Source: Amycolatopsis lexingtonensis (lineage in GTDB: Bacteria; Actinomycetota; Actinomycetes; Mycobacteriales; Pseudonocardiaceae). Taken from it: DNA of 64,000 nt. A program made the position numbers and the translations under genes. The stretch is taken from the NCBI RefSeq assembly GCF_014873755.1, contig NZ_JADBEG010000001.1, forward strand, positions 9,398,501 to 9,462,500, in the 5' to 3' direction. Shown here piece by piece: positions 32,501 through 48,500 of the stretch (positions are counted from its first letter, which is position 1; each line of letters opens with the position of its first letter). The notes below the pieces were generated by a model, which was given only the letters and a program-made list of their open reading frames with translations, ran no database searches and was not told the origin of the DNA.

Positions 32501-35500
32501 CAGTGACGCCGTCCGCGCGGGCGGCTTCCTCACCGGCGCGGCCGAATTCGACCCGGCGTTCTTCGGCATCAGCCCGCGCGAGGCCCTCGCGATGGACCCG
32601 CAGCAGCGGCTGGTGCTGCAGGCGGCGTGGGAGGCCTACGAACGCGCGGGCATCCGCCCGGAGACCGTCCGCGGTCACCGCGACGGCGTCTTCCTCGGCG
32701 CGACCTCGCACGAATACGGCCCGCGGCTGCACGAAGCCGAGGACGGCCACCTGCTGACCGGGACGACGCCGAGCCTGATCTCCGGCCGTGTCGCGCACGT
32801 CTTCGGGCTCGAAGGCCCGGCGATCACCGTGGACACGGCGTGCTCGTCTTCGCTGGTGGCGCTGCACCTGGCGGTGCGGTCGCTGCGCGCGGGCGAATGC
32901 GGACTGGCGCTCGCGGGCGGGGTCACGGTGCTGTCCGGGCCGGGGATGTTCGTCGAGTTCGCCAAGCAGGGCGGCCTGTCCGCCGACGGCCGCTGCCGGG
33001 CGTTCTCGGCCGACGCGGGCGGCACCGGCTGGGCGGAAGGCGCCGGCGTGGTGCTGCTGGAGCGGCTGTCCGACGCGCGGCGCCACGGCCACCCGGTCCT
33101 GGCACTGGTCCGCGGCACGGCGGTGAACTCCGACGGCGCGTCCAACGGCCTGACCGCCCCGAGCGGCCCGGCCCAGCGCCGGGTGATCCGCGCGGCACTG
33201 GCGGACGCGGGGCTGGCGGCGTCCGATGTGGACGTCGTCGAGGCACACGGGACGGGCACGGTACTGGGCGACCCGATCGAGGCTTCGGCGGTGCTGGCCA
33301 CCTACGGTCAGGATCGTGCCGAGCCGGTGCTGCTCGGGTCGTTGAAGTCGAACATCGGCCACGCCCAGGCGGCGGCCGGGATCGGCGGCGTGCTCAAGCT
33401 GGTGCTGGCCATGCGGCACGGGGTCGTGCCGCAGACGCTGCACGTCGGCGAGCCCACGCCGCACGTGGACTGGACCTCGGGTTCGGTCCGGCTGGCGACG
33501 GAGCCGGTCGCTTGGCCCGCGGGGAAGCGGGTCAGGCGAGCGGCTGTGTCGTCGTTCGGCATCAGCGGCACGAACGCCCACGCGGTCCTGGAGGCGGCCC
33601 CCGAGGAGCGCCCCAATGTGGCGTTGGTTGCGTCTGACGCACCGAACGCCACATTGGGTGCGCTGGACGCACCGAACGCCACATTGGGGCGCTCGGGCTC
33701 GGCCTGGGTGCTCAGCGCGAAGACCCCGGACGCGCTGCGGCGGCAGGCCCGGGAACTGCGGGAGCACCTCCTCACGCACCCCGACCTGCCGCTCGACGGC
33801 GTGGCGGCCACCCTCGCCGCCCGCACTCGCTTCGAGTATCGCGCCGGGGTCGTCAGCGGTGATCTCGACGCGCTCGAAGCGCTGGCCGAGCACGGGACCG
33901 GTGCGGTCCGGGTGCCGAGCGGCAAGCTCGCCTTCCTCTGCACCGGCCAAGGTTCCCAGCGCGCCCGCATGGCCGAGCCGCTGTACGACGCCGACCCGGT
34001 CTTCGCCGCCGCCCTCGACGAGGTCTTCGCCGCCCTCGACCCGCACCTGGACCGTCCACTCAAGACGGTCGTCTTCGCCGACGACACCACCCTCCTCGAC
34101 CGCACCGCCTACACCCAGCCCGCGCTCTTCGCCGTCGAAGTCGCGCTGTTCCGGCTGTTCGCGCACCACGGCGTCCGGCCGGACTTCGTCGCCGGACATT
34201 CGATCGGCGAACTCGCCGCCGCGCACGTGGCCGGGATCCTCGACCTCGCCGACGCGGCCCGGCTCGTCGCCGCCCGGGGTGCGCTGATGGACGCCCTGCC
34301 CGCCGGCGGGGTGATGGCCGCCATCGAAGCGACCGAAGACGAGATCCGTCCTTTCGCGGTCGCCTTGGCCGCGGTCAACGGCCCGATGGCCGTTGTCGTC
34401 GCGGGGGACGAAACCGCCGTCGCGGCGGTCGAAACGCACTTCTCCGCGCAGGGACGGCGGACCCGGCGGCTCACCGTCAGCCACGCCTTCCACTCCCCGG
34501 CCATGGACGGCATGCTCGACGCCTTCCGCGAGGTCGCCGAGTCGGTCACGTACCACCCGGCGCGCATCCCGCTGGTCGTCGACGGCGACCCCGGCACCGC
34601 GGACTTCTGGGTCCGGCACGTCCGTGACACCGTCCGCTTCGCCGACACCGTCGCGCGGCTGGCCGAAGCCGGCGTCACCACCTTCGCCGAACTCGGCCCC
34701 GACGCCGTGCTGACCGCGATGGGCCGGGACTGCCTGCCCGACGGGACTTTCCTCCCGACCCTGCGTGCCGGGCGGGTCGACGTCCACGCGACTCTGGCTG
34801 TGCTCGGCGGCAGTGTTCCCGCTCAGTCCACAGTAGACCTGCCGACGTATCCCTTCGAGCGGCAGCGGTTCTGGCTGCCGCCACGCTCACTGCGTGCCGA
34901 CGCCGCGGCCGCGGGCCTCACCCCGACCGGCCACCCGCTGCTCGGCGGCGGCGCCGAGGTCGCCGGTACCGACGGGGTCCTGTTCACCGGCCTCCTCTCG
35001 GTCCGCACCCAGCCGTGGCTGGCCGACCACGTCGTGCTCGGCGCGAACCTCCTGCCGGGTAGCGCTTTCGTGGAACTCGCGCTGCTCGCCGCCGGGCAGG
35101 CGGGCTGCGACCGGCTCGACGAGCTCGTCCAGGAAACGCCGTTGGTCCTGCCCGCGGACGGCCGTGTTCAGCTCCAGGTTTCGCTCGGTGCGCCCGACGA
35201 GACCGGGCGCCGGGCGGTGGCCGTCTCGTCGCGGCCCGACCAGCCGTCGGTGACCGCGGGCTGGACCCGCAACGCCGCCGGGTATGTCTCCACCGGCGGG
35301 GCCGTGCCCGCGCCGGAACCGGTCTGGCCGCCGGAGGGCGCCGAGCCGGTCGGCCTCGACGGCCGGTACGACCGCATCGCCGACGCGGGCTTCGGTTACG
35401 GGCCCGAATTCCGGTGCCTGCGCGCGGTCTGGCGGCGGGGCGAGGAGCTGTTCGCCGAGGTTGCGCTACCGGAGCACCGCGTCGCCGAGGCCGCGGACTA

Positions 35501-45513: not shown

Positions 45514-48500
45514 CGAACGAACAGAAGCTCCTCGACTACCTCAAGCGCGCCACCGGCGACCTGCGCGAGGCCCGTGGCCGGGTCCGCGAACTCGAGGACC
45601 GCGCGCACGAGCCGATCGCCGTCGTCGGGATGAGCTGCCGGTACCCCGGCGGCGTCACCTCGCCCGAGGAGCTGTGGGCGCTGGTCGACGAGGGCCGCGA
45701 CGCCGTCAGCGAGTTCCCCGAGGACCGTGGCTGGGACCTTTCGAAGCTCTACGACCCGTCGTTGGCGCCCGGCACGAGTTACGTCCGGCACGGCGGTTTC
45801 CTCGACGACGTCGCCGGGTTCGACGCCGCGCTGTTCGACCTCAGTCCGCGCGAAGCCACGGCGATGGACCCGCAGCAGCGCCTGCTGCTCGAAGCCGCGT
45901 GGGAGGCGTTCGAGCGGGCCGGTATCGCGCCGGATTCCGTGCGGGGCAGCCGGACCGGCGTGTTCGCCGGCACCAACGGCCAGGACTACGGGCCCCGGCT
46001 GCACGAAGCTCCCGCCGACGTCGAAGGGCACCTGCTGACCGGGCTCGCCGCGAGTGTCCTTTCCGGACGGATCGCTTACGCGTTCGGCCTCGAAGGCCCG
46101 GCGCTCACGGTGGACACGGCGTGTTCGGCATCGCTGGTCGCGGTGCACCTGGCGATCCGGTCGCTGCGGGCGGGGGAGAGCACGCTCGCGCTGGCGGCCG
46201 GCGTGTCGGTGATGAGCACGCCCGGCGGGTTCGTCGAGTTCAGCCGTCAGCGCGGGCTCGCCCCGGACGGCCGCTGCAAGTCCTTCGGCGCCGGCGCGGA
46301 CGGCACCGGCTGGGCCGAGGGCGTCGGCGTCCTCGTGCTGGAACGCCTGTCGGACGCCGAGGCCAACGGCCACACCGTGCTGGCCGTGCTGGCGGGCTCG
46401 GCGGTCAACTCCGACGGCGCGTCCAACGGCCTCACCGCGCCCAGCGGTCCCGCGCAGCAGCGGGTCATCCGGGCGGCGCTGGCCGACGCGCGGCTCGTGC
46501 CGTCCGATGTGGACGCGGTCGAGGCGCACGGCACCGGCACCGTGCTCGGCGACCCGATCGAGGCGGGGGCACTGCTCGCGACCTACGGCCAGGACCGGGC
46601 GACGCCGCTGTGGCTGGGGTCGCTGAAGTCCAACATCGGGCACGCCCAGGCCGCGGCCGGGATCGGCGGGATCATCAAGACGGTCCTCGCCCTCCGCGCG
46701 GGGAAGCTCCCTCGCACGCTGCACGCGGACGAGCGCTCGCCGCACGTCGACTGGACGTCCGGTTCGGTCTCGCTGCTCACGTCGCCTCAGCCGTGGCCCG
46801 CGGGGGACCGCCCGCGCCGGGCCGGGGTTTCGTCGTTCGGGGTCAGCGGGACGAACGCGCACGTCATCGTCGAGGAGCGCCCCAAAGTGGCGTTCGGTGC
46901 GTCCAGCGCACCCAATGTGGCGTTCGGTGCGTCTGACGCAACCAACGCCACATTGGGGCGCTTGGGGCCGTGGCTGCTGTCGGGCAAGTCGGTCGAGGGG
47001 CTGCGGGCGCAGGCCGTCAAGCTGAGCGAGGTCGAACCGAGCGTCGACGTCGCGTTTTCGCTGGCCACGACCCGCGCGCAGCTCGAGCACCGAGCCGTGG
47101 TCGTGGGTGACCTGAGCGCCGGGCTGGCCGCGCTGGCCGAGGGGCTGCCCGCCGCCGGGCTCGTCCAGGGCCAGGCCCGTGCCGAGACCAAGCTCGCCTT
47201 CCTCTGCACCGGCCAGGGCGCCCAGCGGCCGGGCATGGGCCGCGAGCTGTACGCCGCCTTCCCGGTGTTCGCCGCCGCGTTCGACGCCGTCTGCGCGGAG
47301 ATCGACGCGCGCTGGGACGGCGCGCCGCCGCTCAAGGACGTCGTCTTCGCCGAGGTCGACACGCTGCTCGACCGCACCGACTACGCGCAGGCCGGGCTGT
47401 TCGCGGTCGAGGTCGCGCTGGCCCGGCTCGTCGAGTCGTGGGGCATCCGGCCGGACGTCGTGGCCGGTCACTCGCTCGGCGAGATCACCGCCGCCCACCT
47501 GGCCGGGGTGCTCTCGCTCGCCGACGCGGCGACGCTGGTCGCCGCCCGCGGCCGGCTGATGGCGGCGGTGCCCGCGGGCGGGGCCATGGCCGCGATCGAG
47601 GCAAGTGAAGCCGAACTCACGCTGACGCCGGACGTCGACCTCGCCGCCGTCAACGGTCCCTCGGCCGTCGTCGTCTCCGGCCCGGAAGACGCCGTCGCGG
47701 AAGTCGTGGCGCACTGGGCCGCGCAGGGCCGCCGGACCCGGCGGCTCACGACGAGCCACGCGTTCCACTCCGCCGCGATGGACCCGGTCCTCGAACCGCT
47801 GGCGGAGACCGCGCGGGCACTGGACTTCCGGCCGTCGCTCGTGCCGCTGGTGTCCACCCGCACCGGGCAGGTCGCCGACGTGTCCACTGTGGAACACTGG
47901 GTCGCCCAGGTCCGGGAGCCGGTCCGGTTCGCCGACGCCGTCGAGACCCTGGCCGGCCAGGAGGTCACGGCCTACCTGGAACTCGGCCCCGACGGCGTGC
48001 TCACCGCGATCGCGCGCGGCCTCATCGACGCCGTGACCGCGGTCGCGCTGCGCCCGGACCGCGACGAGGCGGCCACCCTGCTGACGGCGGTCGCGACGCT
48101 GCACACCCACGGCGTCCCGGTCGACTGGGCCGCGTTCTTCGCCGGTGCGCGGCGCACCGACCTCCCGACCTACGCCTTCCAGCACGAGCGCTACTGGCTC
48201 ACCGCGGACGGCCGCGCCCCGGCTCGCGTCCGCCCGGAAGTGCCCGTGCGGGGCGGAAACCTGACCGACCTGGTCCGCGCGCAGGCCGCCGCGGTGCTGG
48301 GCCACGCCGAGCCGCTCGACGCCGACCGCGCGTTCGCCGACCTCGGCTTCGACTCGCTGACCGCCGTGGAACTCAGCTCCCGGCTGGGCACGGCGACCGG
48401 GCTGACGCTGCCCGCCACGCTCGTCTTCGACCAGCCGACCCCGGCCGCGCTCGCCGCGTGGCTCGCGGGCGAGACGGCCACCGGAGCCGTCACCGCGCAC

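What the first reader, a model, noticed from the sequence alone, without database searches (positions are those of the whole stretch)
33606..46963. An 89-bp palindromic repeat sits in frame in three KS-AT linkers of the PKS
Copies at 33606-33694, 38541-38629 and 46875-46963 are the same length, have near-perfect 20-nt inverted arms, start in the same codon frame and sit just after the conserved KS end (NAHxxxE). They add about 30 residues (APNATLG-type repeats) to modules 1, 2 and 4; loading and modules 3, 5, 6 and 7 lack them. Either a palindromic element inserts repeatedly at a permissive linker, or one insertion spread between modules by gene conversion. Such hairpins could also drive module recombination and so PKS evolution.
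Basis: partly seen in the sequence, partly recalled or inferred. Interest (0 to 1): 0.75.

Follow-up and report, generated by a model that had tools for sequence, protein, structure and literature searches.

The report
Genome-wide palindrome inside polyketide synthase linkers
A short DNA palindrome scattered about a hundred times through this soil bacterium's genome, mostly just behind genes, has also settled in frame in a flexible joint of its antibiotic-type assembly-line enzymes, where related species show it present, absent, flipped, shortened or lengthened with the reading frame kept.

Summary
In detail: three 89-bp palindromes (85-bp core) sit in frame just after three KS domains; the window's four other motif-recognised linkers lack them. 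They are not PKS-specific. The core belongs to an Amycolatopsis palindromic-repeat family with about 116 copies in this 10.7-Mb chromosome, mostly intergenic and biased to gene 3' ends (convergent 36, divergent 4, of 76 examined). Eleven canonical copies are in frame in megasynthase genes, nine in KS-AT linkers, all in one reading phase. In eight PKS regions of six genomes 39 of 92 KS ends carry it and no other part of those PKS genes does; one relative has a copy in a KR subdomain instead. Orthologous modules show it present or absent, with 2, 3 or 4 units (30 bp = 10 codons), or inverted; it replaces the native linker stretch. No RAYT transposase and no target duplications were found. An IS5-family-like IS uses the repeat as target (7 of 7 copies here). 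Best reading: a REP/MITE-like palindromic family, analogous to Rickettsia palindromic elements, tolerated as a PKS linker because its used phase is benign. Conversion reaching the flanks, and a role in module recombination, were tested and not supported. How it moves is unsolved.

The parts
33606..33694 (+). copy 1, order W+ spacer W- spacer W- (core 33608-33692), in frame in the KS-AT linker; encodes [29 protein letters not shown]
   Evidence: core identical over 85 bp to 8 intergenic copies of the same chromosome
33608..33625 (+). left arm GCGCCCCAATGTGGCGTT of copy 1
   Evidence: 135 forward/135 reverse genome-wide with up to 3 mismatches
33629..33641 (.). first 13-nt spacer of copy 1, itself a small palindrome TGCGTCTGACGCA
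33645..33658 (-). middle unit of copy 1 (reverse orientation)
33659..33671 (.). second 13-nt spacer of copy 1, TGCGCTGGACGCA
33675..33692 (-). right arm of copy 1
38541..38629 (+). copy 2, order W+ spacer W+ spacer W- (core 38543-38627), in frame in the KS-AT linker of the next module of the same ORF
   Evidence: orthologs: same orientation in G068 (1 mismatch), inverted in G003 (4 mismatches), two units in G005
46875..46963 (+). copy 3, order W+ spacer W+ spacer W- (core 46877-46961), in frame in the KS-AT linker of ORF 45510-52925
   Evidence: aligns better inverted to the G068 and G005 orthologs (3 against 18, 5 against 16 mismatches), better direct to G003 (8 against 12)
29520..42359 (+). 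PKS ORF (4279 aa; KS, AT, DH, KR, ACP domains) holding copies 1 and 2
45510..52925 (+). PKS ORF (2471 aa; docking, KS, AT, KR, ACP) holding copy 3
43678..43750 (+). KS-AT linker without the element (control; end approximate)
49758..49820 (+). KS-AT linker without the element (control; end approximate)
54552..54620 (+). KS-AT linker without the element (control; end approximate)
58752..58820 (+). KS-AT linker without the element (control; end approximate)

Best explanation
The three 89-bp palindromes are coding members of a genome-wide family of palindromic repeats found only in Amycolatopsis among the genomes sampled (85-bp core: inverted outer arms, a middle unit in either orientation, two small palindromic spacers; repeat period 30 bp). 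Most copies lie behind genes, above all between convergent genes, as very stable potential hairpins. Some became installed in megasynthase genes, mainly in the flexible coil that joins a KS domain to the following linker domain, where they replace the native stretch of about 15-17 residues. They are tolerated there because in one reading phase, and in either orientation, the element encodes a bland peptide ([28 protein letters not shown]). Its 30-bp unit and its palindromic symmetry make unit gain or loss and whole-element inversion frame-neutral. Shown: copy number, location, phase, presence/absence, unit-number and orientation differences at orthologous sites, replacement of the native linker. 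Inferred: that copies entered PKS genes by the same dispersal route as intergenic copies, that the linker is favoured by tolerance, and that inversion and unit change occur in place by recombination or template switching in the hairpin. The dispersal machinery is unknown.
For: Copy number. Genus restriction: 0 of 143 genomes of other genera match arm plus spacer; with the 85-bp core 24 of 36 same-genus genomes match (14 with 23 or more matches, 10 with only 1-6 weaker ones) and 0 of 24 others. 3'-end bias: convergent 36, tandem 25, divergent 4, unresolved 11 of 76. In-frame copies: 11 canonical ones, 9 in KS-AT linkers, 1 between AT and ACP of another PKS-like ORF, 1 in an NRPS, all 11 in one phase although a second phase is also stop-free in 74-77 of 78 copies. 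Site preference: 39 of 92 KS ends filled in eight regions of six genomes, first unit 18-30 nt after NAH. Presence/absence and 2-, 3-, 4-unit variants at orthologous modules. Orientation: 12 of 29 ortholog pairs align better inverted; in module M0 G000 differs from G003 and G068 by 1 letter inverted against 17-18 direct; intergenic site 5041264 is the exact reverse complement in G003. The long-spacer variant of PKS module M11 also stands between convergent genes at 4989723 and 6222042. The site is a coil after GTNAH in published PKS models (PMC10423236, passages).
Against: No mobiliser was identified and no target duplication found, so mobility is inferred from distribution only. Many filled KS ends are orthologous (G000, G003, G068, G005), so the number of independent installations is unknown. 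KS-AT is not the only coding site: G027 has an in-frame copy next to the SpnB-type Rossmann part of a KR, and the NRPS copy is shared with G003 and G005. In G000 the copies of M7 and M12 are closer to an ortholog (1 and 0 mismatches) than to any intergenic copy there (6 or more), so vertical descent suffices for them. 3'-end location may reflect tolerance, not function. The AlphaFold model was too poor to say whether the insert is disordered. sees only copies with at least two recognisable units; diverged subtypes would be missed.
Confidence: 0.8

Rival explanations
1. One ancestral installation in a single KS-AT linker spread to other modules by gene conversion between modules, and the intergenic copies are a separate matter.
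For: In the eight regions all in-PKS copies are at one place of the module. The junction EEYPNV is shared by M7 and M12 in G000 and G068, and M1 and M14 share junction letters within G000 and within G068.
Against: In seven modules KS flanks of paralogs never exceed 85.8% identity (orthologs mean 92.4%) and AT flanks 81.0% (89.0%), so no tract reaches the flanks. The M0 core of G000 is identical to 8 intergenic copies and the M11 long-spacer form occurs at two intergenic places. Copies in a KR subdomain, an AT-ACP linker and an NRPS show that other coding sites were reached.
Confidence: 0.2
2. Classical MITE: a non-autonomous derivative of an insertion sequence with matching ends, moved by that transposase.
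For: Near-perfect terminal inverted repeats, high copy number, presence/absence at orthologous sites.
Against: No excess of target duplications in 46 non-composite copies. In the copies and partial copies inspected no IS with these arms as its own ends was seen; the IS found in the repeat has different ends and a 3-bp duplication of its own.
Confidence: 0.2
3. REPIN/RAYT system: the repeat is mobilised by a REP-associated tyrosine transposase.
For: Palindromic, mostly extragenic, 3'-biased, target for IS, like REPs (PMC3733652 passages, PMC1525189 abstract).
Against: No Y1_Tnp (PF01797) match in this genome, while the same search rings in 5 of 14 control genomes.
Confidence: 0.05
4. The repeats are functional bidirectional transcription terminators or mRNA 3'-end stabilisers that the host maintains, and the coding copies are accidents.
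For: 36 convergent against 4 divergent locations; hairpins of -64 to -73 kcal/mol (three window copies); at 3 of 5 orthologous sites without the element another hairpin stands in its place (by eye).
Against: By eye no run of T follows the element, so it is no canonical intrinsic terminator; 3' regions may only be tolerant. It does not explain the preference for KS-AT linkers.
Confidence: 0.4

Closest known systems
Rickettsia palindromic elements (RPE)
   Same: Palindromic repeats dispersed in a genome, many in frame inside protein genes with a conserved peptide (PMC10969869 and PMC3733652, passages)
   Different: RPEs are given as about 150 bp and sit in unrelated metabolic genes; here 9 of 11 canonical in-frame copies lie at one structural site of one protein class, with unit-number and orientation variation between species. 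Sequence relation to RPEs was not tested
REP / BIME / REPIN repeats
   Same: Extragenic palindromes, mostly downstream of and between convergent or unidirectional genes, targets for IS (PMC3733652 passages; PMC1525189 and PMC3116915 abstracts)
   Different: No RAYT gene found; 30-bp period with palindromic spacers; in-frame copies in PKS genes
MITEs
   Same: Short, terminal inverted repeats, high copy number
   Different: No target duplications and no cognate IS found
IS that insert into REP sequences (ISPpu9, ISPpu10, ISPa11, ISRm19 and others, PMC1525189 abstract)
   Same: The 950-bp IS sits in the palindrome in 7 of 7 copies in this genome and in 15 of 19 fetched stretches of seven other genomes
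   Different: The target is this Amycolatopsis repeat, at AAT/ATT inside its unit
KS-AT linker coil of modular PKSs
   Same: The element occupies the unstructured start of the linker after GTNAH, where AT-swap junctions us13 and us17 gave soluble, active enzymes (PMC10423236, passages)
   Different: Here the coil is made of a dispersed DNA repeat. That paper notes an insertion of about 25 residues at this place in one bafilomycin module, so the coil accepts other insertions too

Membership tests
Rickettsia palindromic elements | dispersed palindromic repeat with copies in and out of genes | tested here: met
   11 canonical in-frame copies; most others intergenic by a coding-potential heuristic
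Rickettsia palindromic elements | in-frame copies with a conserved peptide / preferred phase | tested here: met
   11 of 11 in one phase; a second phase is open in 74-77 of 78 copies
Rickettsia palindromic elements | sequence homology to a known RPE family | not tested
   no RPE sequences were compared; the match is by type only
REPIN/RAYT | RAYT (Y1_Tnp) gene in the genome | tested here: not met
   0 matches, control rings in 5 of 14 genomes
REPIN/RAYT | extragenic palindromes arranged as inverted repeats forming hairpins | tested here: met
MITE | terminal inverted repeats | tested here: met
MITE | target-site duplication | tested here: not met
   no excess of direct repeats of 2-9 bp at 46 copies
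MITE | autonomous IS with the same ends | tested here: inconclusive
intrinsic terminator | GC-rich hairpin followed by a T run near gene ends | tested here: not met
   hairpin and 3' location present; by eye no T run after the element; no expression data

The most novel reading that the evidence does not exclude
The palindromes are exchange cassettes that need no transposase. Through their hairpins (template switching or single-strand annealing) they overwrite short, structurally equivalent stretches, namely hairpins behind genes and the coil after KS domains, and keep swapping subtype, unit number and orientation between intergenic and coding copies, so that a nominally non-coding repeat family continuously supplies a domain joint of assembly-line enzymes.
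Probability: 0.22. Interest if true: 0.85.

Novelty: new variant of a known kind. Interest (0 to 1): 0.6.

Why it matters
In-frame palindromic repeats are best known from Rickettsia. Here a family in an antibiotic-producing genus has settled, above all, at one structural joint of giant PKS enzymes, and orthologous clusters give a ready natural experiment: the same module with none, two, three or four units, and in both orientations. The place is the coil where PKS engineers obtained good AT-swap junctions (PMC10423236), so the natural variants may guide linker design. The repeat is also an actinobacterial case of palindromes as IS targets and possible 3'-end elements, and it makes the question of how such repeats disperse without a RAYT directly testable by comparing strains.

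Tried and rejected
RAYT-mobilised REP: rejected for this genome. Target duplications, and extra pairing between the two flanks of one copy: none found. Gene conversion reaching the KS or AT flanks: not seen. AT or module exchange at the element: no signal. Known RNA family: the only Rfam matches in the window at gathering scores are six ASpks hits on the minus strand, none at the element. Direct distances to orthologs first suggested replacement of copies; allowing inversion showed that many differences are whole-element flips, so that reading was softened. The AlphaFold job on a KS-AT didomain (still running, done) gave mean pLDDT 52.5 from 7 rows, with nearly the whole KS half below 50; it says nothing about the insert and was not used.

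Papers (open PMC library only): among the titles and abstract beginnings listed, which show part of the papers found, none describes this repeat in Amycolatopsis or a palindromic repeat in PKS linkers. One search found one paper holding both Amycolatopsis and miniature inverted-repeat, on feedlot metagenomes. Searches gave RPE and REP papers. Passages were read in PMC10969869, PMC3733652 and PMC10423236, outline and abstract in PMC1525189 and PMC3116915.

Rows dropped or special: the copies analysed are those fetched, 79 three-unit and 10 two-unit canonical ones of about 116; one search dropped one near a segment end (88 left). It called 10 in frame; I added 9467999 by hand after reading its ORF, and looked at 8043013 and 8274048, which are not in-frame genic copies. 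The long-spacer copy of M11 (9487186) and 4-unit or IS-broken copies are not among the canonical ones. One search covers 76 of 77 non-genic copies. The IS survey of relatives covers 19 stretches chosen from near-complete matches of seven genomes; fragments and contig-end hits were left out. This lowered the gene-conversion rival from 0.25 to 0.2.
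Full report
What is there. The common part is an 85-bp core: an 18-nt arm (GCGCCCCAATGTGGCGTT), a 13-nt palindromic spacer, a middle unit that may point either way, a second spacer and the inverted arm; the period is 30 bp. Each window copy folds as one hairpin of -64 to -73 kcal/mol, 9 to 11 standard deviations better than shuffles.

It is a genome-wide family. In the 10.74-Mb single-contig genome (G000) the arm occurs 135 times on each strand with up to 3 mismatches (control 7 and 8), arm plus spacer 116/117 times (control 0/0), and the whole three-unit structure 89 times (control 0). 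I fetched 83 segments (528 kb, chosen because they hold copies) and found 79 canonical three-unit copies (42 of one orientation, 37 of the other) and 10 two-unit copies. Within the sample the family is limited to the genus: with the core, 24 of 36 same-genus genomes match (14 with 23 or more matches, 10 with only 1-6 weaker ones) and 0 of 24 others; in a draw of 150 genomes of the order only G000 matches arm plus spacer, that is 0 of 143 genomes of other genera and 0 of the 6 other same-genus genomes drawn. The genus is Amycolatopsis: contig C54 of G068 has the length (1,461,667) of A. eburnea GLM-1 record NZ_RSEC01000058.1, and the related stretch lies at the same place.

Where the copies lie. 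By a coding-potential heuristic, of 76 non-genic copies 36 lie between convergent genes, 25 between tandem genes, 4 between divergent genes and 11 could not be placed. Convergent and divergent gene pairs are equal in number on a chromosome to within one, so 36 against 4 is a strong 3' bias (binomial about 1e-7, my arithmetic). Eleven canonical copies are in frame in long ORFs: nine in KS-AT linkers, one between the AT and ACP of another PKS-like ORF (1938815), one in an NRPS between its methyltransferase and AMP-binding C-terminal parts (2289966). All eleven use the same phase, with codons starting at base 2 of the element. That phase is stop-free in 76-78 of 78 copies on either strand, but a second phase is open in 74-77 too and would give Trp-, Arg- and His-rich peptides, so the phase looks selected.

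One favoured place in the module. I took PKS regions from G000 (three stretches), G003, G005, G068, G075 and G097. Of 92 KS ends recognised by motif, 39 carry the element, its first unit 18-30 nt after the NAH codons; no other part of those PKS genes has a copy with two or more recognisable units. The four other copies in these regions are outside PKS genes: three were classed intergenic, the fourth (G003) stands directly behind the stop of a gene whose end matches window ORF 24374-27598. The clusters of G000, G003, G068 and G005 are orthologous, so these are not 39 independent events. Elsewhere the rule has exceptions: G027 has an in-frame copy between DH and KR next to the SpnB-type Rossmann part, and the NRPS copy is present in G003 and G005 too. 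In published PKS models the KS-AT site is a coil (PMC10423236, passages read), and in alignment with solved KS-AT chains it falls in the stretch between KS end and linker domain. My own structure prediction was too poor to use.

Orthologous modules differ. M7 and M9 are empty in G005, M11 in G005 and G068, M13 in G000, while the others are filled; M1 and M13 have two units in G005, M9 has four in G068, M11 is a partial copy in G003 and a long-spacer copy in G000. Empty linkers are 51-57 nt and three-unit ones 105-117 nt by the same measure: the element replaces the native stretch and adds a net 17-21 residues. Among 29 ortholog pairs of three-unit copies 12 align better after inversion and 2 tie; in M0, G000 differs from G003 and G068 by 17-18 letters directly but by 1 when inverted. 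Because the unit is 10 codons long and the core reads in the same phase from both ends, neither change disturbs the frame.

Intergenic sites behave alike. For 11 of 12 probed G000 sites I recovered 26 orthologous site-genome pairs in G003, G005 and G068. The element is absent in 5, of which 3 carry an unrelated hairpin instead, and a remnant in 1; the rest have 1 to 4 units, and 7 of them are of another subtype (AAGGCGGCCTT). One site is the exact reverse complement in G003. These readings are by eye.

Exchange. The M0 core of G000 is identical to 8 intergenic copies, and the M11 long-spacer variant also stands between convergent genes at two places. M7 and M12 are closest to orthologs instead. 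Flanks show no conversion: in seven modules paralogous KS flanks reach 85.8% at most, orthologs average 92.4%. Nor does the element mark AT exchange: KS identity exceeds AT identity by 3.8 points when both orthologs are filled (25 pairs), 3.8 when both are empty (40 pairs) and 4.0 when one is (13 pairs).

How it might move. No Y1_Tnp gene and no excess of target duplications. A 950-bp IS with a DDE_Tnp_4 transposase (best NCBIfam match IS5 family, below that model's cut-off) sits inside the element in all 7 of its G000 copies with a 3-bp duplication AAT/ATT, and in 15 of 19 stretches fetched from seven other genomes (one of these with only one side recognisable), 1 more in a look-alike palindrome and 3 elsewhere. 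It uses the repeat as a target; its ends are unlike the repeat's, so it is not shown to move it.

Judgement. The family works like RPEs in coding sequence and like REPs in intergenic space, but it is not a RAYT system by test, lacks the target duplication of a MITE, and was not compared by sequence with RPEs. It is a new variant of a known kind. The new points are the favoured PKS site, the frame-neutral flips and unit changes between species, and the replacement of the native linker. The main open points are the dispersal mechanism and whether the linker copies do anything for the enzyme.

Noticed in passing
G000:C1 IS copies at 925778, 1544284, 4666299, 5529337, 6313450, 9128206 and 10301387: A 950-bp IS5-family-like IS (DDE_Tnp_4, 3-bp duplication AAT/ATT) inserted in the palindromic element in 7 of 7 copies.
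   Followed up: yes
G027:C4:4577824-4577925 (L290): In-frame copy of the element in a PKS between DH and KR (SpnB-type Rossmann part), not at a KS end.
   Followed up: partly
L196 (G003 near C1:1077272-1078716): A second, different IS (ends GGGGTTGTTTCATC) also inserted in a copy of the repeat.
   Followed up: no
G000 copies such as 1450150, 3175843, 4424627, 9541055: About a dozen cores sit inside longer palindromic arms (CTAGTGTCGCGCGTCC .. GACGCGTGACACTAG): a composite or host repeat.
   Followed up: no
G000:C1:4989723, 6222042, 9487186: A 57-bp extra segment in the first spacer, shared by two intergenic copies and the PKS module M11 copy, where it adds residues in frame.
   Followed up: partly
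L182 (G068 near C16:267444): A short element with the same ends as the IS and an internal hairpin, inside a copy of the repeat: probably a deletion derivative.
   Followed up: no
window 33279-33347, 43384-43452, 46560-46628, 49467-49535, 54258-54326, 58458-58526, minus strand: Six Rfam ASpks (RF01782) matches inside KS-coding sequence; probably KS sequence similarity rather than antisense RNAs.
   Followed up: no
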